From contig NZ_QWET01000011.1 of NCBI RefSeq assembly GCF_003573545.1, forward strand, positions 62,001 to 126,000: a DNA stretch of 64,000 bases. Reading direction: 5' to 3'. Shown one piece after another: positions 49,753-64,000 of this stretch. This DNA is from Mariniphaga sediminis. GTDB taxonomy: Bacteria > Bacteroidota > Bacteroidia > Bacteroidales > Prolixibacteraceae. The translations under genes and the position numbers were made by a program. The first letter of the stretch is position 1. Each line of letters starts with the position of its first letter. The notes under the pieces are model-generated. The model was not told the DNA's origin. It worked only from the letters and a program-made list of their open reading frames with translations, and did not search any database.

Positions 49753-52080
49753 ATGAGTAACATTTTCTTATTAGTTCCATTAGCCTCCATTTTAGCTTTG
49801 GTTTTTGCATGGATATTCTTCAAATCGATGATGAAGAATTCGGAAGGTACAGATCGCATGAAGGAAATTGCGCAGTACGTTCGGGAAGGTGCAATGGCTT
49901 ATTTACGCAGGCAGTACAAAGTCGTAGCACTCGTATTTATTGTTTTGGTCATACTGTTAACTGTTATGGCCTATTTTAAGGTTCAGAACCCGTTTGTTCC
50001 TGTGGCATTCCTTACCGGCGGATTTTTCTCCGGGCTTTGTGGTTTCCTGGGGATGAAAACGGCTACTTTTGCCTCTGCACGTACCGCACACGGTGCCTCT
50101 CAATCGCTTAACAAAGGATTGCAGGTTGCTTTCCGGAGCGGCGCGGTAATGGGGTTGGTTGTGGTAGGTTTTGCCCTGCTCGACATTGCAGCCTGGTTCC
50201 TCGCTTTGGACAACCTGGTTTACACCCCGGAAAATATGGCAAACGGCCTTCATTTTTTAGGGCTTGATTTTGTTCATGCTCATCCGGAATATGTATTGAA
50301 TGGTGAGTTAACCGAGGCTGGTACACGAACCAAACTGGTAGAAATTACCGTTACTATGCTTACTTTCGGTATGGGAGCATCCACTCAGGCATTATTTGCA
50401 CGTGTGGGGGGTGGTATTTACACCAAAGCTGCCGATGTGGGAGCTGACCTGGTGGGAAAAGTGGAAGCTGGTATTCCGGAAGATGACCCGCGTAACCCTG
50501 CAACCATTGCTGACAACGTAGGTGATAATGTGGGAGATGTAGCCGGTATGGGTGCCGACCTCTATGAATCGTACGCCGGTTCTATTCTGGCAACGGCCGC
50601 TTTGGGAGCTTCATTGCCTGCCCTGGTGATGAAGGATGCCGGACTGACGGCATACCAGGCTGTACTTGCCCCGATGATGGTGGCTGCCATTGGTATTATC
50701 CTTTCTATTCTCGGTATTTTTATGGTACGTACCAAAGAAACGGCTACACAGAAAAACCTGCTCAATGCATTACTCTTGGGAACAGGCGGTAGTTCTCTGC
50801 TTATCCTGATTGCTATGATTGGACTTGTTTTCCTTGGTTGGGTAACCTGGGGTGTGTTCTGGGCTGTAGTTATCGGTTTGGCTGCCGGTGTTATTATCGG
50901 CCAGGCTACTGAATATTTTACTTCGGACGAATACAAACCAACAAAAGGTATTGCCGGGCAGGCACAACAAGGACCCGCAACTACTATTATTGACGGACTT
51001 GCAGTGGGAATGTATTCTACCTGGATTCCGGTGGTAACCATTGTGTTGGGTATCATGGGTGCCTTCTGGGCTGCCGGAGGCGGACAACATTTTGCAATGG
51101 GAGTTTATGGTATCGGTTTTGCCGCTGTGGGGATGCTTTCCACTTTAGGAATTACGCTTGCTACAGATGCTTTTGGACCGATTGCTGACAACGCCGGAGG
51201 TAATGCTGAAATGGCTGAGCTTGATCCTAAAGTACGTGAACGTACCGATGCGCTGGATATGCTGGGTAACACTACGGCTGCTACAGGTAAAGGTTTTGCC
51301 ATTGGTTCGGCTGCGCTGACTGCCATGGCCCTTATTTCCGCTTATATGGAAGAAGTGCGCCTGTGGTTTGATAAAATTGCCAAGGCAGGTGAAGGATTCG
51401 TTACAAAAGGTGGTTATGTTTTTTATAATGACGTGGTACCCGCTGTGGAAGAAGGTGTAAAAGTGGTCAAAATATCGACTGCTTCTGTGAAAGATTTTTC
51501 TGCAGCTTACGATATAACATTGTTTAACCCGTTATTCCTGGGAGGTATTTTCCTGGGAGCAATGATGGCATTTGTATTTAGCGCAATGACAATGAAAGCT
51601 GTTGGGCGTGCCGCTGGTGCAATGGTTGATGAAGTACGCCGGCAATTTCGTGAAATTAAAGGAATCCTGGAAGGGAAAGCTGTTCCTGAATATGCCAAAT
51701 GTGTTGAGATTTCAACCAAAGGAGCCCAGAAAGAAATGCTGTTGCCTTCGTTGGTAGCGATTGCCGTTCCTGTAATTGTTGGAGCAACCATGGGAGTTGC
51801 AGGTGTTGTCGGACTGCTTGCAGGCGGTTTGACTTCTGGTTTTACCCTGGCTGTTTTTATGAACAATGCCGGTGGTGCCTGGGACAATGCTAAAAAGTTC
51901 ATCGAAAAAGGAAATTACGGAGGAAAAGGCGGTGAAGCGCACAAAGCCAGTGTAGTAGGAGATACTGTTGGTGACCCGTTTAAGGATACCTCCGGGCCTT
52001 CACTGAATATCCTGATAAAACTGATGACAATGGTTTCAGTGGTAATGGCAGGTTTAACCGTTACCTTGAGTTTATTATAA
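49753..52080 (+). CDS. hppA: Membrane-bound ion-translocating pyrophosphatase
   Basis: 775 residues with about 16 transmembrane helices. Hydrolyses PPi and pumps H+ and/or Na+. The active-site loop [31 protein letters not shown] and [17 protein letters not shown] are typical. The segment [18 protein letters not shown] has Ala where K+-independent enzymes have Lys, so it is of the K+-dependent type. Such enzymes in Bacteroidota can pump Na+ or both ions; sequence reading alone does not settle the ion. It saves energy in anaerobes, fitting the hydrogenase nearby. Confidence 0.96.
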
Positions 52081-53270: not shown

Positions 53271-53308
53271 AAAAGAGAGGGGTTGTTCAGCCCCTCTCTT
53301 TTGTTTTT
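53271..53308 (+). terminator. Terminator of the DHOD-like gene
   Basis: Perfect 12-bp stem aaaagagagggg/cccctctctttt with an 8-nt loop and T run, 25 bp after the stop. Confidence 0.85.
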
Positions 53309-53680: not shown

Positions 53681-54880
53681 CTACAAATATTCTACTTCTA
53701 CGTGCTTGAAAAATTTGTTGGTCAGGATTTTGACAATACGTTTGACCACAAATTTCCGAAGTTCCAGTTCAAGCGGTTGTTCCGGATCCTGATGGGCCCA
53801 GTTGATACGGGTTCCCAGGATAATCTCAATGCTGTCGTGCTGAAGCAAAAGTTTTACCACCTTTTCTGCCGGACTATCCTGCAACCGGGTGTCGCTGTTG
53901 TAGTTTTCCAGTATCTCTTCTACTTTTCCCAGCGTGAGTATCCCTTCTGTTACCATTTCAAAACCGTCCATATTGGCCACAGGGGGCAACATTTCCGGAT
54001 TTTTTGCAATGTGCTGGATCTCAACTTCGATGTCTAATTCGCGAGCAATGATTTCGGCAGTGGTTCCACCGCAGATAATTTTTTTTCCGTTAAAGCTTTT
54101 GATCCGGTCAGCAAAATCATAATCTTTTATTTTGTAAAATGGAGGTCCGGTAATTAGCATAAACTTTCGCGGTTCCCTGAAATAAATAACTCCGCAGGTG
54201 GTGTCATCTTTCATCTCGAAATTATCGTTTATTACTGCCTGGTTGATAATTTTCCGGCCCAGTTTTGCCGCCGAAATATCAGGCATGCGGTTAACCTGGT
54301 TCAGGGCAAAATCATAAATATTTTCAACTCCCCAGCCCATCGGATATCTTTTGTTTCCGAGCCCCGATTGTACCACACCATCGCTCAGAAATACTATCCT
54401 GTCTTCTTTGCGAGCAATAAATTCCCGGCATCTCAGAAGTTTACCCACATTTTCCCGGCCTCGTATTTCCAGTTCGTATTCGCGTGGTTCAAAAAGTTGT
54501 CCGTTTCTAATGATGAGTACCGGTGGATTGTCATAATTAATGATGCGCACCCGTCCGTCGGTTTCCAGTTCAATAATAGTAAACGTGGCGTAGCTTTCTT
54601 TTCCGTCACTGCTTTTAGGAAGTGCCTCCATAATAATTTTCGCTGAAATTTCCGGCTTGGTATGAAAGCGGGTATATTTCAGCGCCATGGTAGCGGTAAG
54701 TGTAGCCAAAACACTGGCCTTTATCCCATGCCCGATTCCGTCACTCAAAACCAGAATGGTGCGACCTTCTTCTTTAAAAATATCGGACATAAAAACATCT
54801 CCGCAGGCAATTTCGCCTTTGGGACGTTTTTGCTGAACGTCTATTTCAACGTGGTAATTCAGGTTAGTGGTCGTTACCAT
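53681..54880 (-). CDS. SpoIIE (PP2C-type) serine phosphatase of the hydrogenase island
   Basis: 399 residues. PP2C/SpoIIE phosphatase domain at about 1-235 with metal-binding LVLSDGIGHG, YATFTIIELE, FLSDGVVQSGLG and KDDTTCGVIYF. A further 165-residue C-terminal part (FMLITGPPFYKIKD, IICGGTTAEIIARELDIEV) matches no domain I know and could be a ligand-binding or interaction module. It overlaps the PAS gene by 17 bp. By family it would dephosphorylate a Ser/Thr phosphoprotein in a partner-switch; the ATPase and DRTGG proteins across the divergent promoter are the obvious candidates. Confidence 0.85.
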   Translation of the reverse strand: MVTTTNLNYHVEIDVQQKRPKGEIACGDVFMSDIFKEEGRTILVLSDGIGHGIKASVLATLTATMALKYTRFHTKPEISAKIIMEALPKSSDGKESYATFTIIELETDGRVRIINYDNPPVLIIRNGQLFEPREYELEIRGRENVGKLLRCREFIARKEDRIVFLSDGVVQSGLGNKRYPMGWGVENIYDFALNQVNRMPDISAAKLGRKIINQAVINDNFEMKDDTTCGVIYFREPRKFMLITGPPFYKIKDYDFADRIKSFNGKKIICGGTTAEIIARELDIEVEIQHIAKNPEMLPPVANMDGFEMVTEGILTLGKVEEILENYNSDTRLQDSPAEKVVKLLLQHDSIEIILGTRINWAHQDPEQPLELELRKFVVKRIVKILTNKFFKHVEVEYL

Positions 54881-55790
54881 ATCGGTATGATTCTACAATT
54901 GAGTTAAGTAATTCTTCTGTTTCGGCTGCATTTTCACCCAGCAGGTAGGCAATTTTTTGTACGGTTTCAATGTTTTGTTCCTTAATACGCTGGGCCCGGT
55001 TAATAATCTCATCGCGTACCAGCAGTGGTGCCGACATGTCGCGGATAACCGCCCCCACCACTTTTTGTTTGTAAAGGGTAACTACCGAAACATGCAGCAG
55101 TTTTTCGCTGTATTTAATGTCGCGTTCCAGTATATCTTCTCCCGAGGAGAGGATGCTTGAGAGCATTTTGAAAATAACCTCCGGCACAAGCTCTTCCACG
55201 TCAGCGCCTTTCAGTCCGGGAATTGTATCGAAAAGTTCTGCTGTTTCTTCACCCATCAACCGGGCAAAACTTTCGTTGGAGTCGACCACCTTTTGGTTTT
55301 CGTCCATCATTAAAATACCCACATTTATTTTATGTAACATGTGCGATGAAATTTCCATCGACTCCTGGGCTTTTTCCAGCCTCTTTTCGGTTTTTTTCAA
55401 TTTGGTTACATCGTTTATGGAACCAACAATTCCAACAATTTTGCCGTCATTATTCCGGATAACTGCCTTGTTGATTACCACATCCAGTCGCGACCCGTCT
55501 CTTTGTTTTACCTTTGTTTCATAAATTTGAATGTCAGGGTTGGCCAGCAGATCCTGATCTTTGTGATAATAAATTTCAGCCATGTGTTTTGTGTGAATTT
55601 CAAATACTGACTGGCCAATGATTTGCGCTCTTGGCCTTCCGGAAAATTCTTCGTGGGCTTTATTACACATTTGGTAAACGCCTTTTAAGTCCCGGTAAAA
55701 TATAGGAATCGGCAATGCATCGAAAATTTTCTGATAAAATTCCGGATCTTCGATATTCCCGGGCAGGAAAGATTTTTTGTCGTAAATCAT
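54864..55790 (-). CDS. Two-PAS-domain sensor protein
   Basis: 308 residues, no transmembrane segment. First PAS at about 18-130 (FYQKIFDALPIPIFYRDLKG, followed by the PAC strand GIVGSINDVTKLKKTE). A coiled linker follows, then a second PAS at about 150-260 (GILMMDENQKVVDSNESFARLMG). The C-terminal helical tail VQKIAYLLGENAAETEELLN has no kinase domain. Output is presumably through the overlapping SpoIIE phosphatase. The ligand or cofactor of the PAS domains cannot be read. Confidence 0.85.
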   Translation of the reverse strand: MIYDKKSFLPGNIEDPEFYQKIFDALPIPIFYRDLKGVYQMCNKAHEEFSGRPRAQIIGQSVFEIHTKHMAEIYYHKDQDLLANPDIQIYETKVKQRDGSRLDVVINKAVIRNNDGKIVGIVGSINDVTKLKKTEKRLEKAQESMEISSHMLHKINVGILMMDENQKVVDSNESFARLMGEETAELFDTIPGLKGADVEELVPEVIFKMLSSILSSGEDILERDIKYSEKLLHVSVVTLYKQKVVGAVIRDMSAPLLVRDEIINRAQRIKEQNIETVQKIAYLLGENAAETEELLNSIVESYRYGNDH

Positions 55791-55919
55791 TTTTATTTTT
55801 TTTCAGGAATACAATCAGTCCGAAATGTAATGAATAAAAACCTTATTTACATTCATTTTAAATCTATTTAAAAACAGGATTTTTTGATATTTGACAGTAT
55901 ATGGGTTTGAATCTTCCTG

Positions 55920-55927
55920 TATATTTG
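55920..55927 (+). promoter_or_regulatory. Candidate -7 element of the hydrogenase operon
   Basis: TATATTTG matches TAnnTTTG exactly 37 nt before the GTG start at 55965. No TTTG is at the ideal -33 spacing. The 174-bp region is divergent and shared with the PAS gene. Confidence 0.45.
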
Positions 55928-55964
55928 CTGAAAAGATTTCAAAAATCAATATCAACTACCGACC

Positions 55965-56309
55965 GTGAAGATCAGTGAAATTATTAAATATACCGAAGCA
56001 TCTGTTGTTACAGGTAACCCGGAAAATGACAAGGACCTGGAAAAAGGTTTCAGTTCCGACTTAATGAGCGATGTGCTTACCCTCGACGAAGAAAATATTT
56101 TATTAATTACCGGGCTTTCAAACCTTCAACTGGTTCGTACGGCCGAAATGGCCGATATCCAGGCGGTACTGCTTGCCCGCGGAAAGCAGGCTTCTCCGGA
56201 AATGATTGAGCTGGCAAACGAAAATAATCTCATTATTCTGGAAACTCCTTTTTCTATTTATAAAGCCAGTGGCATACTGTATTCTAATGGATTAAAAGAA
56301 GTTTACTGA
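55965..56309 (+). CDS. DRTGG domain protein (first copy)
   Basis: 114 residues from a GTG start. The start is supported by alignment with the second copy (MKISEII against MKVSDLV). DRTGG-type fold with the shared core GFSSDLMSDV and AVLLARG, no catalytic residues known. Homologous to the gene at 58079, the two flanking the HydS-like gene. The stop overlaps the ATPase start by one base (TGATG). The family is small and poorly characterised; ligand or phosphate binding is possible. Confidence 0.82.
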   Translation: MKISEIIKYTEASVVTGNPENDKDLEKGFSSDLMSDVLTLDEENILLITGLSNLQLVRTAEMADIQAVLLARGKQASPEMIELANENNLIILETPFSIYKASGILYSNGLKEVY

Positions 56310-56728
56310 TGGCACTCGAATTGGTTTTTCAAATAGAAGGAGGTGATTTTTCCAACGCTGGAAAAGCTTCGAGCCAGATAAAAAAGGTGTTGAAACAATT
56401 GAATATTGACACGCGGATCATAAAACGGGTTGTTGTTGCCGTGTACGAAGCGGAGGTAAATGTGGCGGCTCATGCTCACCGGGGGCAGGTGAAGGCGCTG
56501 TTTGGTGAAACGGAAGTTGAGGTAGTTGTTACCGACCAGGGACCTGGTATCGAAAATATTGAACAGGCTATGCAACCTGGTTATTCCACCGCTTCGAAAG
56601 AGGTGCGGGAAATGGGGTTTGGAGCGGGAATGGGATTGTCCAACATAGCAAAAAACACAGATAATTTACATATTGAAAGTGAAGTGGGAAAAGGGACAAT
56701 TTTAACGTTCAGGTGCAATTATTCATGA
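56309..56728 (+). CDS. RsbW/RsbT-like ATP-binding (HATPase) protein
   Basis: 139 residues. GHKL ATPase with N box YEAEVNVAAHAHRG, G1 DQGPGIENIE and G2 FGAGMGLSNI. It has no histidine-kinase dimerisation domain, so it resembles serine kinases of partner-switching systems (RsbT, RsbW, SpoIIAB). Such proteins act opposite SpoIIE phosphatases, one of which lies across the promoter. No STAS-domain antagonist is present in the island; the DRTGG proteins may take that place (inference). Confidence 0.85.
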   Translation: MALELVFQIEGGDFSNAGKASSQIKKVLKQLNIDTRIIKRVVVAVYEAEVNVAAHAHRGQVKALFGETEVEVVVTDQGPGIENIEQAMQPGYSTASKEVREMGFGAGMGLSNIAKNTDNLHIESEVGKGTILTFRCNYS

Positions 56729-58092
56729 AAGGGAAAACAAAATATCATGCATTGAAAGTGGATACCGAAAAGTGTTTTGGCTGTACCCATTGTATGAAGA
56801 TTTGTCCTACCGAAGCCATCCGCATTGTGGACGGGGTTGCTACCATCGATCAATACCGTTGTGTAGATTGTGGAAACTGTTTGCGTGCCTGTCCGGTAGA
56901 TGCGTTTTATGTTGAACAGAATCAACTGAGCCATATTGAAGATTTTAAATACCGCGTGGTTTTGTTTCCCTCGGTTTTTATCGGCCAGTTTTCCGAGATT
57001 TATTCAGAAGGGCGTATTTATGAGGCGTTGCTTCGTTTGGGATTTACACATATTTTTGAAGTGGAGCAGCCTGCCTTATGGCTAATGGAATCAATCAAGG
57101 AAAGCAGTCAGGAGTTGGCCGAAGGGCCACTTATTTCTTCCTTCTGTCCGGCCATCGTACGGTTGATTCAATCCAAATATCCTTCGCTGACCCGGAATAT
57201 TGCCCCGCGAAAAGCCCCTCATGATTTAGCGGCTCATTTTGCCATAGAGCAATTAAAAATGCAGGGAGCCAACGAAAGTGAAATCGGTATTTTTTATGTT
57301 TCACCGTGCTCGGCAAAAATGGCGGCTGTTAACCAGCCGGTAGCCGAAAAGGAATCGATTGTTACCGGAGTTATTAATATGAAGGATTTGTATAACCGGA
57401 TAATGAGGCTGCTTCCGGCAAATGAAACAACTGACACTTCCGGTTTCAGGCAGTACCTGAGCCGGGAAGGCATTTTGTGGAGCCTCCCACGTGGCGAAGC
57501 TTCCTGGTTCAAAAAACGATCGATGGCTATCGACGGCATTCATAATGTGGTGAAGTTTCTGGAACGCCTGGAAAATGATGAGGTTCCAAAACTCGATTTT
57601 CTGGAGTTGAAGTCGTGCAACCAGGGTTGTGCCGGGGGAATTCTGCTTACCGGTAACCGGTTTCTTACCGTGGAGCGCTTGCAAAAAAGAGCATTACGGT
57701 ATCCCAAAGCTTCTCAAATCAATCCCGAAGGAGTCAGGAAGGAAACTGTGCAGAAAAAGCTGATCTCGGATAATGTAGAGCCACGTCCTGTTTTTGTTTT
57801 GGATCAGGATCGCACCCGCGCCCTGGAAAAGATGAAGAAGATTAATAACATTCTTTGCCATTTGCCGGGTATTGACTGTGCCGGGTGCGGGGCGCCAAAC
57901 TGCCACGCATTGGCAGAAGATATTGTGCAGGGAAAAGCCCGGATGACAGATTGTATTTTCCTTCAGAATAAATTTATAAAAGAACTAAAAGTAAAACCGG
58001 ACAAGGCTTGCGCTAACCTGGAAAGAATCTGGGGTAAAAAGCGTTTTGAGGCCGATTGCAATAAGAAAGGAGGAAGAAATGAAGGTTTCTGA
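56725..58092 (+). CDS. HydS-like [FeFe] hydrogenase homologue (putative sensor)
   Basis: 455 residues from ATG 56725, overlapping the previous stop as ATGA. Two [4Fe-4S] ferredoxin sites at the N-terminus (CFGCTHCMKICP and CVDCGNCLRACP). The H-cluster domain keeps the four ligand cysteines: Cys141 in SFCPAI, Cys195 in SPCSAK, and Cys298/Cys302 in SCNQGC. Catalytic enzymes have TSCCP, MPC and a GGGQP tail; here the proton-relay Cys is Phe140, the Met is Ser and GGGQP is absent. A C-terminal [4Fe-4S] site has Cys385, Cys388, Cys393 and Cys410. This matches putative sensory hydrogenases (groups C/D) and suggests little or no turnover. Confidence 0.85.
   Translation: MKGKTKYHALKVDTEKCFGCTHCMKICPTEAIRIVDGVATIDQYRCVDCGNCLRACPVDAFYVEQNQLSHIEDFKYRVVLFPSVFIGQFSEIYSEGRIYEALLRLGFTHIFEVEQPALWLMESIKESSQELAEGPLISSFCPAIVRLIQSKYPSLTRNIAPRKAPHDLAAHFAIEQLKMQGANESEIGIFYVSPCSAKMAAVNQPVAEKESIVTGVINMKDLYNRIMRLLPANETTDTSGFRQYLSREGILWSLPRGEASWFKKRSMAIDGIHNVVKFLERLENDEVPKLDFLELKSCNQGCAGGILLTGNRFLTVERLQKRALRYPKASQINPEGVRKETVQKKLISDNVEPRPVFVLDQDRTRALEKMKKINNILCHLPGIDCAGCGAPNCHALAEDIVQGKARMTDCIFLQNKFIKELKVKPDKACANLERIWGKKRFEADCNKKGGRNEGF
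58066..58073 (+). promoter_or_regulatory. Unusually strong Shine-Dalgarno sequence before the second DRTGG gene
   Basis: AAAGGAGG lies 5 nt before ATG 58079, inside the 3' end of the HydS-like gene. Such sites are rare in Bacteroidota genes, and it fixes the start at 58079 rather than the upstream ATG 58046. Confidence 0.5.
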
Positions 58093-58417
58093 TTTGGTTG
58101 AAAAATATGGCTTGAAGGTATTTGCGGGCCAGGAAAGCCTGGGAAAAGAGATTTCCGGAGGCTATGTTTCCGACCTTTTAAGCGATGTGATGGGGCATGC
58201 CAAAGAGAATGAAGTTTGGATAACATTGCAGACCCACCAGAATGTAATGGCCATTGCTTCCTTGAAAGACCTGGCGGCGGTTATCCTGGTGAAAGGCCTG
58301 GAACCGGATGATGACACATTAGCGCGGAGCAGGGAAGAAGGTATTCCGTTGCTTGGGACAAACAGGGGAACTTTTGAAATGGCCGGAGTGCTATTCAACG
58401 AGTTAAAATCATCATGA
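58079..58417 (+). CDS. DRTGG domain protein (second copy)
   Basis: 112 residues. Paralogue of the gene at 55965: it shares MKVSDLV, GGYVSDLLSDVMG (GFSSDLMSDV in copy one), AAVILVKG and a Gly-rich C-terminal MAGVLF segment. It overlaps the HydS-like gene by 14 bp and the PHP gene by 4 bp, so it is translated in one coupled chain. Function unknown; two diverged copies in one operon suggest either different ligands or a hetero-oligomer. Confidence 0.82.
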   Translation: MKVSDLVEKYGLKVFAGQESLGKEISGGYVSDLLSDVMGHAKENEVWITLQTHQNVMAIASLKDLAAVILVKGLEPDDDTLARSREEGIPLLGTNRGTFEMAGVLFNELKSS

Positions 58418-59154
58418 AAAAATACAGGGCTGATTTACATATCCATACTTTGTTGTCGCCCTGTGCTGATTTGGAAATGACCCCCAATAACATTGTGAAA
58501 AAGGCCCGGGCAAGCGGTTTACATATTATTGGCATTACGGATCATAACGCTACAAAACATGCTTTGCTGGTAAAAAAAATAGCGGAAGAAACAGGAATTT
58601 TTACGCTGACCGGGGCTGAAGTCACTACGAAAGAAGAGGTACATTGCCTTGCTTTTTTTGCCGAACAGGAACAACTGCACCAATTTCAGGATTTTATCGA
58701 TGAAAATATAACCCGTATTCCGAACACTGAAAATTATTTTGGTTACCAACCGGTAATTGATGAACAGGAGAATATCCTCGAGCTGGTGCCATACTATCTT
58801 CCGGCGGCGCTTAAAACCGATATCCACTCCCTTCAGCAAACGGTGGAAAAGCTGAATGGCATTTTTATCCCGGCCCATATCGACCGGCCGGTGAATGGAA
58901 TAATAAGCCAGTTGGGCTTTATCCCGCCAGGTTTAAAATACGATGCGTTAGGCCTTTCAAGACATGGTTCAGAAAAACATGTTAAAAAACAATATGTTTT
59001 ACAAAATAAAACGACCCTTATTCGCAATTCTGATGCCCATTTTCTGGAACAAATTGGCGACATTTACACTGTCTTTAACATGGAAGAAATCAGCTTCTCT
59101 GAAATAAAAAAGGCGCTGAATCAACAGGATAAACGATTTTGTGAAATAGTATGA
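58414..59154 (+). CDS. PHP domain protein
   Basis: 246 residues. Metal-binding PHP motifs: ADLHIHTLLSPCADLEMTP, ITDHN, GAEVTTKEEVH, PAHIDRP and RNSDAHFLEQIGD. PHP proteins are metal-dependent phosphoesterases or nucleases; this type regularly accompanies DRTGG and HydS genes in anaerobes. Starts as ATGA over the preceding stop. A substrate, perhaps a phosphorylated signal, is unknown. Confidence 0.85.
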   Translation: MKKYRADLHIHTLLSPCADLEMTPNNIVKKARASGLHIIGITDHNATKHALLVKKIAEETGIFTLTGAEVTTKEEVHCLAFFAEQEQLHQFQDFIDENITRIPNTENYFGYQPVIDEQENILELVPYYLPAALKTDIHSLQQTVEKLNGIFIPAHIDRPVNGIISQLGFIPPGLKYDALGLSRHGSEKHVKKQYVLQNKTTLIRNSDAHFLEQIGDIYTVFNMEEISFSEIKKALNQQDKRFCEIV

Positions 59155-59699
59155 AAACCATCTCTGAGCATGTACTTGATATTGTGCAGAATTCAGTGAG
59201 GGCAAAGGCAACATTGATTGAAGTCATGGTTGATGAGGACAAAAAGAATAACCTTTATACCTTGTCGGTAAACGACAATGGAGAAGGAATGAGCAGGGAG
59301 GTTTTGGAGCAGGCAGTTAATCCGTTCTTTACATCCCGAACTACCCGGAAAGTAGGCCTGGGATTGCCCCTGTTAAAACAAAATGCGGAAACGGCGGGCG
59401 GTTCGTTTCAAATTCAATCAGAGCCGGGGAAAGGGACGCAGGTGCGGGCTGTCTTTCAGCTTGAACACCTGGACCGGCCACCGCTGGGAGATGTTTGGGA
59501 CAGTTGGCTGTTAATTCTTTTGAGTAATCCCGGAATTCGACTGATATACCGTCATCGGGTGGGGAAGGACTCATTTGAAATAGATTCACAGGAAATAAGG
59601 GAGATGTTTGAAGGGGTTTCCCTTCAACACAAAGAGGTGAGAAAGGCCCTTGTTGAGATGATGAAAAACAATCTTGTCGAGATAAAAGCAAGCAAGTAA
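59151..59699 (+). CDS. ATP-binding (HATPase) protein, second copy
   Basis: 182 residues. GHKL ATPase: N box HVLDIVQNSVRAKATLIEV, G1 VNDNGEGMS, F/G2 FFTSRTTRKVGLGLPLLKQ and GKGTQVR. Closer to the histidine-kinase ATPase shape than the first copy, but without a phospho-His domain. The extra 65 residues at the C-terminus (DVWDSWLLILLSNPGIRLIY) resemble no known domain. Starts as ATGA over the PHP stop; the next gene follows after 23 bp. Confidence 0.83.
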   Translation: MKTISEHVLDIVQNSVRAKATLIEVMVDEDKKNNLYTLSVNDNGEGMSREVLEQAVNPFFTSRTTRKVGLGLPLLKQNAETAGGSFQIQSEPGKGTQVRAVFQLEHLDRPPLGDVWDSWLLILLSNPGIRLIYRHRVGKDSFEIDSQEIREMFEGVSLQHKEVRKALVEMMKNNLVEIKASK

Positions 59700-59722
59700 C
59701 CAAAATAAAAACCGTTTCAACT

Positions 59723-60118
59723 ATGACAAAAATAAAGACACTGGCAGATCTCCGAAAAATAAGGGATGAGGTTCAGTCCAAAATCAGATTACGTGAAAAC
59801 AGCGACCATCCTGAGCAGGTGGTCCAGGTTAAGGTCGGCATGGCAACTTGCGGGATTGCTTCCGGTGCCAAAGAAACCATGAAGTATTTTATGGACGAGC
59901 TGGAACAGCAGGCCATTGACGCTGTGGTAACGCAAACCGGATGTATGGGATACTGTTATGCCGAACCAACTGTGGAGATTACTCTCCCGGGAAAGGAACC
60001 TGTGATTTTTGGCTTCGTGGATAAAGAAAAAGCGGAAGAAATTATTGATGTTTACATCAAACGGGGGGAACTTATTGATGGCGTTATCCCATTGACTTTT
60101 AGGACAATTGACGATTAA
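59723..60118 (+). CDS. Thioredoxin-like [2Fe-2S] ferredoxin domain protein
   Basis: 131 residues. [2Fe-2S] ligands in MATCGIASGA and TGCMGYCYAEP, the pattern of NuoE/HndA-type thioredoxin-like ferredoxins. The N-terminal helix (TLADLRKIRDEVQSKI) is typical of the HydD/HndB-like subunit found just before hydB. Predicted to be an accessory electron carrier or subunit of the hydrogenase complex. Confidence 0.88.
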   Translation: MTKIKTLADLRKIRDEVQSKIRLRENSDHPEQVVQVKVGMATCGIASGAKETMKYFMDELEQQAIDAVVTQTGCMGYCYAEPTVEITLPGKEPVIFGFVDKEKAEEIIDVYIKRGELIDGVIPLTFRTIDD

Positions 60119-60138
60119 GAATATTCAACTGATCAATT

Positions 60139-61932
60139 ATGACCGACTATAAAATACACCTTCTGATTTGCGGCGGGACAGGCTGTAAATCATCAGAGAG
60201 TGATGAAATTAAAAAATCGTTGAAGTACTGGATTGATGAGGCAAACCTGAAAGAAGAAGCTCAGGTGGTACTTACCGGCTGCTTTGGCTTTTGTGAAAAA
60301 GGACCCATCGTTAAAGTGTTGCCCGACAATACCTTTTATGTAGAGGTTAAGCCTTCTGATGCCGAGGAAATTGTAAAAGAGCATTTGCTGAAAGGGAGAC
60401 CGGTTCAACGGTTGCTTTACAAAGATCCGCATACCAATCAGCAAATCAGCGATTCCAAAGGAATGGATTTTTACAAGAAACAGATGCGCATTGCCTTGCG
60501 GAATTGTGGTTTTATTAACCCGGAAAGTATTCATGAATATATTTCCCGTGACGGGTACATGGCATTAGGAAAATGTTTGACGGAACTAACTCCCGAAGAG
60601 ACGATAAAGGAGGTAAAGGATTCCGGTCTTCGCGGGCGCGGAGGCGGCGGTTTTCCAACCGGTTTGAAATGGGAAATTACCCGTAATTCAGAGGCTGATC
60701 AAAAGTATGTGGTTTGTAATGCAGATGAAGGGGATCCCGGCGCTTTTATGGACCGTTCAATTTTGGAAGGCGATCCGCATTCTGTAATCGAAGCCATGGC
60801 CATTTGCGGTTATTGTATCGGTGCAGATAAAGGCCTGGTTTATATCAGGGCTGAATACCCCCTGGCTATCGAGCGCCTGACAACAGCTCTCAGACATGCA
60901 CGGGAATACGGACTTTTGGGCAATGACATTTTGGGTACTGGTTTTAATTTTGAAATTGACATTCGGCTCGGAGCCGGAGCGTTTGTGTGTGGTGAAGAAA
61001 CAGCGCTTATCCATTCCATGGAAGGGTTGCGGGGCGAACCAACTTTTAAGCCGCCATTCCCGTCGGTGGCCGGTTACCTGGGTAAACCCACCAATGTGAA
61101 CAATGTAGAAACCTTTGCCAATATTCCGGTCATCATAAACAAAGGCGCTGCCTGGTTCAGTGAAATAGGGACTGAAAAATCGAAAGGTACCAAGGTTTTT
61201 GCCCTGGCCGGAAAAATCAATAATGTAGGACTGATTGAAGTTCCGATGGGAACAACGTTGCGCGAAGTGATTTACGATATTGGTGGCGGCATTAAAGACG
61301 GGAAGGAGTTTAAGTCTGTTCAGACCGGAGGCCCTTCGGGGGGATGCCTTACCAAAGATTTTCTGGATACACCCATTGATTACGATAATCTTCTGGCTGC
61401 GGGTTCAATGATGGGGTCGGGCGGTATGATTGTGATGGACGAAGACGACTGTATGGTTTCCATTGCCAAGTTTTACCTCGAATTTACGCTGGAAGAATCC
61501 TGCGGAAAATGTTCGCCCTGCCGTATTGGAAACAAACGGTTGCATGAGATTCTTGAAAAAATTACCAAAGGATATGGTGAGGAGAAGGATATCGAACGTT
61601 TGAAACTGTTGAGTAACGTAATTAAAGATACCTCTTTGTGCGGCCTCGGGCAATCGTCGCCCAACCCGGTTTTGTCTACCATTGCCAATTTTGAAGATGA
61701 ATACCTGGCCCATGTACAGGAACAAAGATGTCCGTCGGGACAGTGCAAAGCGCTACTGAAATATGAAATCATCGAAGATTTGTGCACCGGCTGTACGTTG
61801 TGTTTCCGCAACTGTCCGGTGGGCGCTATTACGGGCGAGCGAAGGCAACCGCATTACATCGACCAGTCGCTTTGTATTAAGTGCGGCGCGTGTTACGAGA
61901 AATGCAAATTCAATGCAATTAAACTTTCATAG
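60139..61932 (+). CDS. hydB: [FeFe] hydrogenase NAD(P)/FMN subunit (HydB/HndC, NuoF-like)
   Basis: 597 residues. N-terminal thioredoxin-like [2Fe-2S] domain (CGGTGCKSSES and CFGFCEKGP). NuoF core with NADH/FMN site GLRGRGGGGFPTGLKW, NADEGDPGAFMDR and GAGAFVCGEETALI, and [4Fe-4S] at SCGKCSPCRIGNK. Two C-terminal [4Fe-4S] ferredoxin sites (CTGCTLCFRNCPVGA and CIKCGACYEKCKFNA). This domain order is that of HydB in trimeric electron-bifurcating hydrogenases, which couple NADH and reduced ferredoxin to H2. Confidence 0.93.
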   Translation: MTDYKIHLLICGGTGCKSSESDEIKKSLKYWIDEANLKEEAQVVLTGCFGFCEKGPIVKVLPDNTFYVEVKPSDAEEIVKEHLLKGRPVQRLLYKDPHTNQQISDSKGMDFYKKQMRIALRNCGFINPESIHEYISRDGYMALGKCLTELTPEETIKEVKDSGLRGRGGGGFPTGLKWEITRNSEADQKYVVCNADEGDPGAFMDRSILEGDPHSVIEAMAICGYCIGADKGLVYIRAEYPLAIERLTTALRHAREYGLLGNDILGTGFNFEIDIRLGAGAFVCGEETALIHSMEGLRGEPTFKPPFPSVAGYLGKPTNVNNVETFANIPVIINKGAAWFSEIGTEKSKGTKVFALAGKINNVGLIEVPMGTTLREVIYDIGGGIKDGKEFKSVQTGGPSGGCLTKDFLDTPIDYDNLLAAGSMMGSGGMIVMDEDDCMVSIAKFYLEFTLEESCGKCSPCRIGNKRLHEILEKITKGYGEEKDIERLKLLSNVIKDTSLCGLGQSSPNPVLSTIANFEDEYLAHVQEQRCPSGQCKALLKYEIIEDLCTGCTLCFRNCPVGAITGERRQPHYIDQSLCIKCGACYEKCKFNAIKLS

Positions 61933-61950
61933 AGAAGAAATTCAGAAACG

Positions 61951-63702
61951 ATGGATACAGTACAATTAACCATAGATAATAAACCGGTAGTCGTAAAAAA
62001 AGGGATTACCGTTCTGGAAGCGGCAACAAGTGCGGGGGTTCATATTCCAACACTTTGCCACATGAAACTGGATGACCTGAACATTGAAAACAAACCCGGA
62101 GGGTGCCGCATTTGTGTGGTGGAGGTAGAAGGTCGGAGAAACCTGGCGCCTGCCTGCTGTACGGAAGTTGCTGAGGGGATGGTTGTTAATTCCCATTCAA
62201 TCCGGGTGATAAATGCCCGGCAAACCGTGTTGGAATTAATTCTTTCAGACCATCCGGCGGATTGTCTGATATGTGCAAAGTCCGGTAATTGCGAATTGCA
62301 GGATATGGCTCATCAACTCGGAATACGGGAGATTCATTATAAAGGAGAACAATCTACTTACCGGGAAGATACTTCGCCGGCCATTATCCGCGATGTGGAC
62401 AAGTGTATTATGTGCCGTCGTTGCGAGATGATGTGCAACGAGGTGCAAACAGTGGGCGTTCTGTCTGCCATTAACCGTGGGTTTAATGCCGTGGTTTCAC
62501 CGGCTTTTGAAATGAACCTCGACCACTCGGTTTGCACTTATTGCGGGCAGTGCGTTGCTGTTTGTCCTACCGGGGCTTTAACCGAAGTGGATCAAACGGC
62601 TCATGTTGTTCGCGCGCTTTCAGACCCGGATAAAACCGTGATTGTACAAACGGCACCAGCTGTGCGTGCTGCTTTGGGAGAAGAGTTTGGGCTGGAACCC
62701 GGAACGCTGGTTACCGGTAAAATGGTTTCAGCATTGCGGCGCCTTGGGTTCGATTATGTATTCGATACTGATTTTGGAGCCGACCTGACCATTATGGAGG
62801 AAGGAACTGAAATGCTAAACCGGCTGTCGCGCTTTTTGGAGGGGGACGAAAGCGTAAAATTGCCCATTCTGACTTCATGCTGCCCGGCCTGGGTGAAATT
62901 TTTTGAACACCAGTTTCCGCAACTGAAAGATATTCCTTCTACAGCGCGTTCGCCACAGCAGATGTTCGGCAGCATTGCCAAAACCTATTTTGCTGAAAAG
63001 ATGGGGGTGGAACGTGACAATTTGATTGTGGTTTCCATTATGCCCTGTGTGGCAAAAAAATATGAATGCGGGCGGGATGAGTTTAAAGTGGATGGAAATC
63101 CCGATGTGGATTATGCCATTACTACCCGCGAGCTGGCGAATCTGATCAAACTGGCCAACATTAGTTTTGACCGGCTGCCTAATGAAGATTTTGATATGCC
63201 CTTAGGTGAATCTACCGGCGCGGCGGTTATTTTTGGTACCACCGGCGGGGTCATTGAAGCTGCAGTGCGTACCGCTTATGAATTGTACACCAAAAAACCG
63301 TTACCAAAGCTTGATTTCCATGAACTGCGCGGCATGGATGGCATCCGGCAGGCAACCATCGATTTTGCAGGGTTTCCATTAAAGATTGGTATTGCACACG
63401 GTTTAGGGAACGCACGCCGTCTGCTTGAAAAGATAGAATCGGGCGAAAGTGAATTTCATGCTATTGAAATAATGAGCTGTCCCGGTGGATGTATTGGTGG
63501 CGGAGGTCAACCTTATCATCATGGAAACGCGGAAATTCTGAAAAAACGTCAGATGGCCCTTTACCAGGAAGACAGCAACAAAAAAATTCGCAAGTCGCAT
63601 GAAAATCCATTCATCATTCAGTTATATGAAGAATTTTTGGAAAAACCAATGAGCGAAAAAGCTCACCATTTGCTGCATACCAAGTATTTTGACAGAACTT
63701 GA
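61951..63702 (+). CDS. hydA: [FeFe] hydrogenase catalytic subunit
   Basis: 583 residues. Plant-type [2Fe-2S] at about 35-75 (GGCRICVVEVEG), the His/Cys-ligated [4Fe-4S] (DHPADCLICAKSGNC), two ferredoxin-type clusters (CIMCRRCEMMCNEV and CTYCGQCVAVCPTG), then the H-cluster domain with complete motifs: TSCCPAW (308-314), MPCVAKK (364-370) and EIMSCPGGCIGGGGQP (starting at 507). The C-terminal small-subunit-like tail is LYEEFLEKPMSEKAHHLLH. All residues for catalysis are present, in contrast to the HydS-like protein 5 kb upstream. HydE, HydF and HydG maturases are not in the window. Confidence 0.95.
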   Translation: MDTVQLTIDNKPVVVKKGITVLEAATSAGVHIPTLCHMKLDDLNIENKPGGCRICVVEVEGRRNLAPACCTEVAEGMVVNSHSIRVINARQTVLELILSDHPADCLICAKSGNCELQDMAHQLGIREIHYKGEQSTYREDTSPAIIRDVDKCIMCRRCEMMCNEVQTVGVLSAINRGFNAVVSPAFEMNLDHSVCTYCGQCVAVCPTGALTEVDQTAHVVRALSDPDKTVIVQTAPAVRAALGEEFGLEPGTLVTGKMVSALRRLGFDYVFDTDFGADLTIMEEGTEMLNRLSRFLEGDESVKLPILTSCCPAWVKFFEHQFPQLKDIPSTARSPQQMFGSIAKTYFAEKMGVERDNLIVVSIMPCVAKKYECGRDEFKVDGNPDVDYAITTRELANLIKLANISFDRLPNEDFDMPLGESTGAAVIFGTTGGVIEAAVRTAYELYTKKPLPKLDFHELRGMDGIRQATIDFAGFPLKIGIAHGLGNARRLLEKIESGESEFHAIEIMSCPGGCIGGGGQPYHHGNAEILKKRQMALYQEDSNKKIRKSHENPFIIQLYEEFLEKPMSEKAHHLLHTKYFDRT

Positions 63703-63780
63703 AAGATTGGCGCTGGTTGCCGTTCTTTTGAATAATATTATCAAACTTTTTTAAACGAGAGACATATAAAAACATAGGTC

Positions 63781-64000
63781 ATGCCAAAAATAAAACTTGC
63801 AGAAAATACCATTCAGATTATAAAAGATATTTGTTCCGAATTTAACCATAGTGAAGGTGAATTGATAAATGTGTTGCATAAAGTTCAGCATACGTTGGGA
63901 TATTTACCGGCGGAGGTGCAGGAAGTAATTGCCAGGGAGCTGAAAACCTCGGTGGCTAAAGTGTACGGGGTAGTTACATTTTATAGCTTTTTTACCATGG
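63781..64000 (+). CDS. hydC: NuoE-like [2Fe-2S] subunit of the hydrogenase (HydC); 3' end outside window
   Basis: 73 residues are seen. It reads MPKIKLAENTIQII, then LINVLHKVQHTLGYLPAEVQ and KTSVAKVYGVVTFYSFFTM, the helical N-terminal half and the start of the thioredoxin-like fold of NuoE/HydC. The cysteine ligands lie beyond the window edge. 78 bp after hydA and in the same direction, completing HydB-HydA-HydC. Confidence 0.88.
   Translation, partial: MPKIKLAENTIQIIKDICSEFNHSEGELINVLHKVQHTLGYLPAEVQEVIARELKTSVAKVYGVVTFYSFFTM

What the first reader, a model, noticed from the sequence alone, without database searches (positions are those of the whole stretch)
53681..64000. Regulatory island of HydS, SpoIIE, PAS, two HATPases, two DRTGG proteins and PHP joined to a catalytic bifurcating-type [FeFe] hydrogenase
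Seen: a divergent PAS-SpoIIE pair, a chain of overlapping genes (ATGA, TGATG and 14-bp overlaps) and then HydB-A-C. Known: SpoIIE phosphatases and RsbW/T-like ATPases act as partner switches, normally with a STAS-domain antagonist, which is absent. Inferred: DRTGG proteins may replace STAS as the phosphorylated switch, and HydS feeds H2 or redox state to it to control the hydrogenase.
Basis: partly seen in the sequence, partly recalled or inferred. Interest (0 to 1): 0.78.

Follow-up and report, generated by a model that had tools for sequence, protein, structure and literature searches.

The report
STAS-free switch around a hydrogen sensor
Next to a hydrogen-making enzyme sits a gene cassette, shared by many bacteria, that looks like a kinase switch built round an unusual hydrogen-sensing protein and that may tell the cell how much hydrogen or reducing power is present.

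Summary
The genes are there as described. They are two regulatory modules, not one.

Core cassette: DRTGG1-HATPase1-HydS-DRTGG2-PHP-HATPase2. HydS looks like a group D (M2e) [FeFe]-hydrogenase. In 83 HydS-baited loci, DRTGG precedes HATPase1 in 81 of 82. The cassette also lies beside HdrA and Rnf genes. Natural fusions join DRTGG1-HATPase1, HydS-DRTGG2 and PHP-HATPase2. Both DRTGG proteins carry one serine in 157 of 157 copies; canonical DRTGG domains have it in 4 of 21.

Second module: PAS-SpoIIE. The PAS protein's C-terminal half is homologous to the tail of group C (C3, phosphatase-linked) sensory hydrogenases. In 14 of 14 stretches that I chose elsewhere, this SpoIIE family sits beside a full group C HydS. 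Here a PAS domain stands where the hydrogenase domain should be.

SpoIIE as its phosphatase is not supported: 3 of 40 cassette genomes show neither SpoIIE nor a free STAS protein. The PHP protein is the better candidate. Phosphorylation and output remain untested.

The parts
53681..54880 (-). SpoIIE-type PPM phosphatase (399 aa) with a C-terminal domain of about 160 aa for which no PDB relative was found by sequence
   Evidence: Pfam SpoIIE 7.8e-15 over residues 38-232; C-terminal part: best PDB hit E 0.093, taken as chance; same family lies beside group C HydS elsewhere
54864..55790 (-). PAS protein (308 aa): N-terminal PAS domain plus the C-terminal PAS-and-tail region of group C HydS
   Evidence: Pfam PAS 1e-20 at 17-128; its C-terminal half (from residue 123-137 on) aligns with the C-termini of five group C HydS, i-E 1e-47 to 3.1e-38
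55965..56309 (+). DR1, small DRTGG protein (114 aa), candidate phospho-acceptor, S35
   Evidence: Pfam DRTGG 5.1e-07; S35 and T49 81 of 81; AF2 pLDDT 95.1, nearest solved fold 2ioj
56309..56728 (+). ATP1, SpoIIAB/RsbW-like GHKL kinase (139 aa)
   Evidence: TIGR01925 4.2e-18, 65.6 bits, below its cut-off of 135; nearest PDB SpoIIAB; ten of eleven ATP-site positions looked at 82 of 82, the eleventh (G122) 71 of 82
56725..58092 (+). HydS, group D (M2e)-like [FeFe]-hydrogenase, putative H2 sensor (455 aa)
   Evidence: Pfam and NCBIfam; H-cluster cysteines 83 of 83, C-terminal Cx2Cx4Cx16C, no PAS
58079..58417 (+). DR2, second small DRTGG protein (112 aa)
   Evidence: Pfam DRTGG 2e-06; S35, T49, Y29, N55 76 of 76; fused to HydS in L149 and L166
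58414..59154 (+). PHP-family metal-dependent phosphoesterase (246 aa), candidate phosphatase of the cassette
   Evidence: Pfam PHP 5.2e-09; predicted metal ligands 74-76 of 76, the rest gaps
59151..59699 (+). ATP2, GHKL ATPase with a C-terminal alpha/beta domain (182 aa), possibly the counterpart of HydE of A. woodii
   Evidence: Pfam HATPase_c 2e-17; AF2 pLDDT 93.5, nearest MutL, topo VI-B and histidine kinases
59723..60118 (+). HydD-like small thioredoxin-like [2Fe-2S]-type protein (name by recall)
   Evidence: open frame and place; recurs before HydB in related loci
60139..61932 (+). HydB, NuoF-like subunit (name by recall)
   Evidence: open frame; its model scores over 300 bits in 54 of 83 loci
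61951..63702 (+). HydA, catalytic group A [FeFe]-hydrogenase subunit (TSCCP and MPC motifs, recalled)
   Evidence: sequence read directly
63781..64000 (+). HydC, NuoE-like subunit (name by recall), cut by the window end
   Evidence: open frame running off the window

Best explanation
A portable signalling cassette built round a group D-like sensory [FeFe]-hydrogenase. Shown: the cassette is conserved; DR1 goes with ATP1, HydS with DR2 and PHP with ATP2 (natural fusions); HydS can be missing while ATP1 carries an N-terminal extension (CBS domains in the one case scanned); the neighbours include three ferredoxin-linked complexes (HydABC, HdrA, Rnf). Inferred: ATP1 is a SpoIIAB-like serine kinase that phosphorylates DR1 at S35, a STAS-free partner switch; HydS reads H2 or low-potential redox state and acts through DR2; the PHP protein removes phosphate; free or bound ATP1/ATP2 then sets the amount or activity of HydABC. 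The PAS-SpoIIE pair is a second, separable input: a group C3 phosphatase module whose hydrogenase sensor domain has been replaced by a PAS domain.
For: Order, in loci baited with HydS: DR before ATP1 in 81 of 82, HydS after ATP1 in 82 of 82, DR after HydS in 69 of 83, PHP after that DR in 69 of 69. Second bait: of 47 stretches chosen by DRTGG in the phylum of a Bacillota genome, 43 have ATP1 and 40 of these have DR before it. Fusions: DR1+ATP1 in L142 and L168, HydS+DR2 in L149 and L166, PHP+ATP2 in L169, L174 and L070; identities. Pair DR1-ATP1 alone within the 10 kb of L156. S35 157 of 157 in the first set and 85 of 85 in the second (three loci shared) against 4 of 21 in canonical DRTGG. ATP1 and PHP site residues kept. 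Rnf and HdrA neighbours. C3 origin of PAS-SpoIIE.
Against: No phosphorylation has been shown; invariance of S35 and T49 also fits a ligand pocket. DR1's fold is DRTGG, not STAS. ATP1 scores far below the SpoIIAB equivalog cut-off (65.6 against 135 bits). No sigma factor or DNA-binding family was hit among the eight proteins scanned, so the output is unknown. Whether PHP acts on protein or on a nucleotide is unknown. [quoted passage not shown] A free STAS protein exists elsewhere in this genome, and 32 of 40 cassette genomes have a STAS match in a frame smaller than transporter size.
Confidence: 0.5

Rival explanations
1. One reading: ATP1 and/or ATP2 phosphorylate DRTGG proteins and the PAS-regulated SpoIIE removes the phosphate, so that all eight genes form one circuit.
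For: SpoIIE lies in the fetched stretch in 14 of 83 loci, in three arrangements: divergent with PAS, co-directional after a group C HydS, and downstream of hydC. 37 of 40 cassette genomes have some SpoIIE match.
Against: SpoIIE has no match in 3 of 40 cassette genomes that also show no free STAS; in 14 of 14 chosen stretches it lies beside a group C HydS, and 12 of these 14 show no DR or ATP1 gene.
Confidence: 0.15
2. The DRTGG proteins are ligand-binding (for example nucleotide) regulators or scaffolds. The conserved S35/T49/D32 face binds a small molecule, and the HATPases sense ATP charge without phosphorylating a protein.
For: Nearest folds are AF1212 and the CBS-DRTGG region of a pyrophosphatase; a CBS pair is fused to ATP1 in a locus without HydS (L136), and similar extensions are seen by eye in three more; the conserved residues lie at strand ends and a helix start in the model.
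Against: S35 is not conserved in canonical DRTGG domains; the partner is nearest to SpoIIAB rather than to a plain ATP-binding protein.
Confidence: 0.3
3. The cassette is an assembly or maturation aid for ferredoxin-linked complexes, with HATPases and PHP acting like chaperones rather than signalling parts.
For: A. woodii HydE 'may be involved in assembly or signalling' (PMC3315566, passage); ATP2 resembles MutL and topo VI-B folds; frequent linkage to such complexes.
Against: Short cassettes without such a complex in the 9-10 kb held in L131 and L156; Rnf and Hdr have no H-cluster to assemble (established knowledge).
Confidence: 0.15
4. The PAS-SpoIIE pair acts on the conventional switch of this genome (STAS on C10, HATPase_c_2 on C9) and has nothing to do with the cassette beside it.
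For: Those parts exist; a second SpoIIE protein lies on C27. L011 and L013, of related bacteria, have the cassette without the pair in the stretch held.
Against: PAS and SpoIIE together stand beside the cassette in nine loci of this clade: window, L007-L010, L012, L014, L015, L033.
Confidence: 0.3

Closest known systems
TamHydS, group D (M2e) [FeFe]-hydrogenase of Thermoanaerobacter mathranii (PMC8163306 and PMC13104023, passages)
   Same: Domain layout, C-terminal Cx2Cx4Cx16C, loss of the proton-relay cysteine, hydroxyl residue in place of M353, histidine-kinase-like ATPase gene next to it, bifurcating hydrogenase downstream.
   Different: The passages read name an AraC-type regulator as the other flank, mention no DRTGG, PHP or second ATPase gene, and say that no PAS domain is found in the operon; here PAS-SpoIIE is next door and no AraC gene is in the cassette.
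Group C3 phosphatase-linked [FeFe]-hydrogenases (HydDB, PMC5037454, passages)
   Same: SpoIIE phosphatase gene beside a protein with the same C-terminal PAS and tail.
   Different: Here the H-cluster domain is missing and a PAS domain takes its place.
HfsB/HydS of Thermoanaerobacterium and Ruminococcus (PMC5707799, passages)
   Same: Hydrogenase-like protein thought to sense H2 and to signal to a Ser/Thr kinase; deletion of hfsB changed adhE transcript and ethanol yield.
   Different: Sensor with its own PAS domain; the passages read name no DRTGG or PHP partner.
SpoIIAB/SpoIIAA and RsbW/RsbV partner switches
   Same: Small GHKL kinase of the SpoIIAB type; the gene before it encodes a small alpha/beta protein with an invariant serine.
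   Different: DRTGG fold instead of STAS; no sigma factor seen; two DRTGG and two HATPase genes; PHP phosphoesterase.
CBS-DRTGG regulatory region of family II pyrophosphatase (PDB 3l2b, 3l31)
   Same: DRTGG fold; CBS domains pair with DRTGG.
   Different: There in one polypeptide and without kinase; module DRTGG carries S35 and T49.
HydE of Acetobacterium woodii (PMC3315566, passages)
   Same: Histidine-kinase-like ATP-binding protein in the bifurcating hydrogenase operon; several Bacillota loci here show HydC-ATP2-HydD-HydB-HydA, which is the hydCEDBA order as I recall it.
   Different: Not aligned to the A. woodii protein itself; the five-gene operon described there has no HydS or DRTGG gene.

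Membership tests
Group D (M2e) [FeFe]-hydrogenase | H-cluster cysteine ligands kept | tested here: met
   four ligand cysteines 83 of 83 each
Group D (M2e) [FeFe]-hydrogenase | proton-relay C299 lost and M353 replaced by Ser/Thr (CpI numbering as in PMC8163306; mapping by motif, partly recalled) | tested here: met
   C299 place F/Y/A/S 83 of 83; M353 place T/S 83 of 83
Group D (M2e) [FeFe]-hydrogenase | C-terminal Cx2Cx4Cx16C and no PAS domain | tested here: met
   cysteines 81-82 of 83, the rest gaps; no PAS in the Pfam scan of P0005
Group D (M2e) [FeFe]-hydrogenase | placement in a tree with reference group D proteins | not tested
   no reference set of named groups was aligned
Group C3 phosphatase-linked module (PAS-SpoIIE pair) | SpoIIE-type phosphatase gene adjacent | tested here: met
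Group C3 phosphatase-linked module (PAS-SpoIIE pair) | C-terminal PAS and tail of group C HydS | tested here: met
   i-E 1e-47 to 3.1e-38 against five group C HydS
Group C3 phosphatase-linked module (PAS-SpoIIE pair) | [FeFe] H-cluster domain | tested here: not met
   absent from P0002; no match with both H-domain and tail in this genome or 5 relatives
SpoIIAB/RsbW partner switch (DR1-ATP1) | GHKL serine kinase of the SpoIIAB/RsbW type with intact ATP site | tested here: inconclusive
   TIGR01925 best NCBIfam hit but below cut-off; SpoIIAB best in PDB; ATP-site positions kept; kinase activity not testable
SpoIIAB/RsbW partner switch (DR1-ATP1) | STAS-domain antagonist | tested here: not met
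   DR1 is DRTGG by sequence and fold; no STAS gene in the cassette; free STAS only on contig C10
SpoIIAB/RsbW partner switch (DR1-ATP1) | PPM phosphatase that resets the antagonist | tested here: inconclusive
   SpoIIE beside the cassette here but in 14 of 83 loci overall, and without match in 3 of 40 genomes
SpoIIAB/RsbW partner switch (DR1-ATP1) | reversible Ser/Thr phosphorylation and release of a bound target | not testable with these tools
   needs biochemistry
DRTGG domain family (DR1, DR2) | Pfam PF07085 above gathering score and DRTGG fold | tested here: met
   29.9 and 28 bits against 25.2; 2ioj TM 0.83 for DR1; DR2 was not folded
PHP phosphoesterase | metal-binding motifs of the PHP domain (motifs by recall) | tested here: met
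   74-76 of 76, the rest gaps

The most novel reading that the evidence does not exclude
Bacteroidota and Bacillota use a STAS-free partner switch: a SpoIIAB-like kinase paired with a DRTGG protein phosphorylated on S35, reset by a PHP phosphatase. Interchangeable sensors (a group D [FeFe]-hydrogenase reading H2, or CBS domains reading adenylates) plug into it, and it controls the ferredoxin-linked energy complexes Hyd, Hdr and Rnf.
Probability: 0.35. Interest if true: 0.85.

Novelty: new variant of a known kind. Interest (0 to 1): 0.64.

Why it matters
[quoted passage not shown] The conserved cassette and its natural fusions name the likely partners (DR2 for HydS, DR1 for the kinase) and one residue (S35) to test. 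If right, it links H2 sensing to energy-conserving complexes in fermenters and their relatives, and adds a second kind of antagonist to partner switching.

Tried and rejected
Rejected: SpoIIE as a constant part of the cassette. Rejected: DRTGG as a hidden STAS fold (no STAS protein among the 50 Foldseek hits shown). Considered and set aside: a free STAS protein as the missing partner; 8 of 40 genomes show none outside transporter-size frames, though completeness was not given for these genomes and most are draft or MAG records. Led nowhere: PDB relatives of the SpoIIE C-terminal domain; sigma-70 promoter scan, 21 found against 20.3 in shuffles; the second structural aligner. Tree of the DRTGG proteins: first and second copies each group apart (81 of 81, 76 of 76) but with weak support, 0.38 and 0.63. 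Literature, ten searches of an open-licence PMC library: no paper with DRTGG + hydrogenase + SpoIIE (14), DRTGG + anti-sigma + hydrogenase (25) or DRTGG + HATPase (83); DRTGG + hydrogenase gave one paper, on another protein (82, 85). Passage searches of PMC5626996, PMC6288185 and PMC8924675 showed no sensory or DRTGG context, and PMC3582634 none for sensor or phosphatase. Zheng 2014 was not held; the Sieber 2010 and Moorella HydABC papers were not looked for by id.
Full report
WHAT IS THERE. The window lies in a 5.8 Mb genome of 70 contigs; the closest HydS proteins in named records are those of Draconibacterium, Maribellus and Sunxiuqinia, so I take the host to be a Bacteroidota of that kind. 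All genes of the finding are present. SpoIIE and PAS are in tandem on the minus strand and overlap by 17 bp; 174 bp away on the plus strand start DR1, ATP1, HydS, DR2, PHP and ATP2, each overlapping the next by 1, 4, 14, 4 and 4 bp, followed by HydD, HydB, HydA and a HydC cut by the window end. HydD, HydB, HydA and HydC are named by layout and recall.

THE CASSETTE IS REAL. With L005, L006 and the window that makes 83 loci, all chosen by HydS. My own profile models, built from the window proteins by up to three rounds of search, give: ATP1 in 82, DR directly before ATP1 in 81 of 82, HydS directly after ATP1 in 82 of 82, DR after HydS in 69 of 83, PHP after that DR in 69 of 69, ATP2 within three domains of PHP in 61 of these 69. 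Many loci are cut by contig ends. Of the 14 without DR after HydS, six carry the block DR2-PHP-ATP2 upstream instead (L055, L058, L059, L062, L063, L064), L066 carries it on the other strand, and seven have none in the stretch held (L027, L040, L044, L048, L065, L067, L086; L048 and L086 end at or just after HydS). The units DR1-ATP1-HydS and DR2-PHP-ATP2 thus move as blocks. In a sample of the window's own phylum, 3 of 296 genomes matched HydS at 1e-30, the window's own included.

A SECOND BAIT. Searching Pfam DRTGG in 119 genomes of the phylum of G328 (the genome of L079, a Bacillota record by title) matched 71. I fetched 50 stretches round matches that I chose from that list, mostly small frames; three (L150, L177, L178) were dropped before counting as other kinds of protein. 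Of the 47 left, 3 had no ATP1 or HydS anchor (L129 and L140 with broken frames, L157 at a contig end) and L173 had HydS without ATP1; 43 had ATP1, 40 of these with DR before it and 38 with HydS after it; the five others are L130, L131, L132, L136 and L156. L159, L175 and L176 repeat L083, L079 and L080. So the small DRTGG genes looked at there mostly belong to this cassette.

FUSIONS TELL THE PARTNERS. DR1 and ATP1 are one frame in L142 (Pfam finds both domains) and L168; the two are 69% identical. HydS and DR2 are one frame in L149 and L166, 66% identical. PHP and ATP2 are one frame in L169 and L174 (95% identical, one lineage) and, at 41% identity, in L070 of Bacteroidota. L156 holds DR1-ATP1 alone within 10 kb.

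EXCHANGEABLE SENSORS AND TARGETS. In L130, L132 and L136 HydS is missing and ATP1 carries an N-terminal extension; in L136 Pfam names it CBS (two stretches), and in L130, L132 and L143 (which has HydS) I read the same kind of extension by eye. L136, L143 and L158 hold rnfC near the cassette, with HydD between in L136 and L143; L005 lies beside hdrA (L006 by eye); 54 of 83 loci hold HydB. L131 and L156 stand near genes with Mur-ligase domains (folC-like) and a valS-like gene, without such a complex.

THE INVARIANT SERINE. In the first set S35 and T49 are kept in 81 of 81 DR1 and 76 of 76 DR2; in the second, 85 of 85 and 84 of 85. In canonical DRTGG domains (30 loci; 21 alignments of at least 90 letters) S35 is serine in 4 of 21 and T49 threonine in 4 of 21; the alignment in that region is uncertain. 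The model of DR1 (pLDDT 95.1) puts S35 in a short helix (34-38) after a strand. The nearest solved folds are AF1212 (TM 0.83), CBS-DRTGG of a pyrophosphatase, a pseudomurein ligase and HPr kinase; no STAS protein is among the 50 listed. DR1 would thus be an analogue of STAS, not a relative.

KINASE AND PHOSPHATASE CANDIDATES. ATP1 is nearest to SpoIIAB (TIGR01925 4.2e-18, under its cut-off; PDB 1til and others); ten of eleven ATP-site positions looked at are kept in 82 of 82, the eleventh in 71. PHP keeps its predicted metal ligands in 74-76 of 76, the rest gaps. Since PHP is in the cassette and SpoIIE mostly is not, PHP is the likelier counter-enzyme; that is inference. ATP2 resembles MutL, topo VI-B and histidine kinases and perhaps corresponds to HydE of Acetobacterium woodii, which is not part of the enzyme and 'may be involved in assembly or signalling' (PMC3315566, passages).

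STAS AND SpoIIE ELSEWHERE. I gave 40 of the 80 loci to the genome searches, mainly those on longer contigs. STAS: 38 of 40 genomes match; those of L026 and L070 do not, and in six more (L029, L032, L037, L043, L045, L057) the only match is a frame of 532-590 aa, of transporter size; the other 32 have a smaller STAS frame as well or alone. SpoIIE: 37 of 40 match, 36 over the cut-off; L029, L043 and L045 do not. These three have the cassette with hydB, hydA and hydC and show neither SpoIIE nor a free STAS; completeness of these genomes was not told. The window genome itself has a free STAS on C10, a second SpoIIE on C27 and an RsbW-like HATPase on C9.

PAS-SpoIIE IS A REBUILT C3 MODULE. The C-terminal half of the PAS protein aligns with the C-termini of five group C HydS proteins (L016, L017, L018, L053, L060; i-E 1e-47 to 3.1e-38), each beside a SpoIIE of the same family. 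From the SpoIIE matches I chose and fetched 14 stretches round frames of about 400 aa; all 14 have a protein with both HydS and PAS-tail matches beside SpoIIE (L187 and L189 are the loci of L018 and L017 again, and the other 12 show no DR or ATP1 gene). In the window genome and five relatives only the C-terminal part is found, at the PAS gene, apart from matches to other hydrogenases. HydDB calls group C3 'phosphatase-linked (putative)' (PMC5037454, passages). So in this clade an ordinary PAS domain has taken the place of the H-cluster domain; that group C came first is inference. L011 and L013 have the cassette without this pair in the stretch held.

KNOWN AND NEW. Group D HydS, its putative sensor role and an adjacent kinase-like ATPase are published (PMC8163306, passages). 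[quoted passage not shown] Deletion of hfsB, a HydS homologue, changed adhE transcript and ethanol yield in Thermoanaerobacterium (PMC5707799, passages). I found no paper that names the DRTGG and PHP partners or a DRTGG-HATPase pair, within an open-licence library only. The gene set is therefore filed as a new variant of sensory-hydrogenase systems; a STAS-free phospho-switch would be new, but is untested.

Noticed in passing
window 53681-55790: PAS-SpoIIE looks like a sensor swap: the [FeFe] H-domain of a group C sensory hydrogenase replaced by a PAS domain in the Draconibacterium/Maribellus/Sunxiuqinia clade.
   Followed up: yes
L002 1468-1821 (G000:C10): Free STAS protein (117 aa) with a DSSGL motif beside an rnz-like gene; with the HATPase on C9 and the SpoIIE on C27 it may form the ordinary partner switch of this genome.
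   Followed up: partly
L136 4160-9001, L143, L158: DRTGG-HATPase cassettes near Rnf genes, in L136 with CBS domains fused to the kinase and without HydS.
   Followed up: partly
L131 3450-5123, L156 3716-4616: Short cassettes without HydS near folC-like and valS-like genes, with no redox complex in the stretch held.
   Followed up: partly
L005, L006: Cassette directly after an HdrA-like gene in two genomes of the window's phylum.
   Followed up: partly
L129, L140, L145, L148, L170: HydS and/or PHP fall into two or more frames or fragments here: decay, frameshift or sequence error, not told apart.
   Followed up: no
window 53271-53302: Terminator-like hairpin (14 pairs, T tail) on the plus strand after the dihydroorotate-dehydrogenase-like gene (name by recall) and before SpoIIE; 15 such patterns in the region against 13.5 in shuffles.
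   Followed up: no
window 49753-52080: A membrane protein of 775 aa that looks like a pyrophosphate-energised ion pump (by recall) lies just upstream, another ion-coupled energy enzyme.
   Followed up: no
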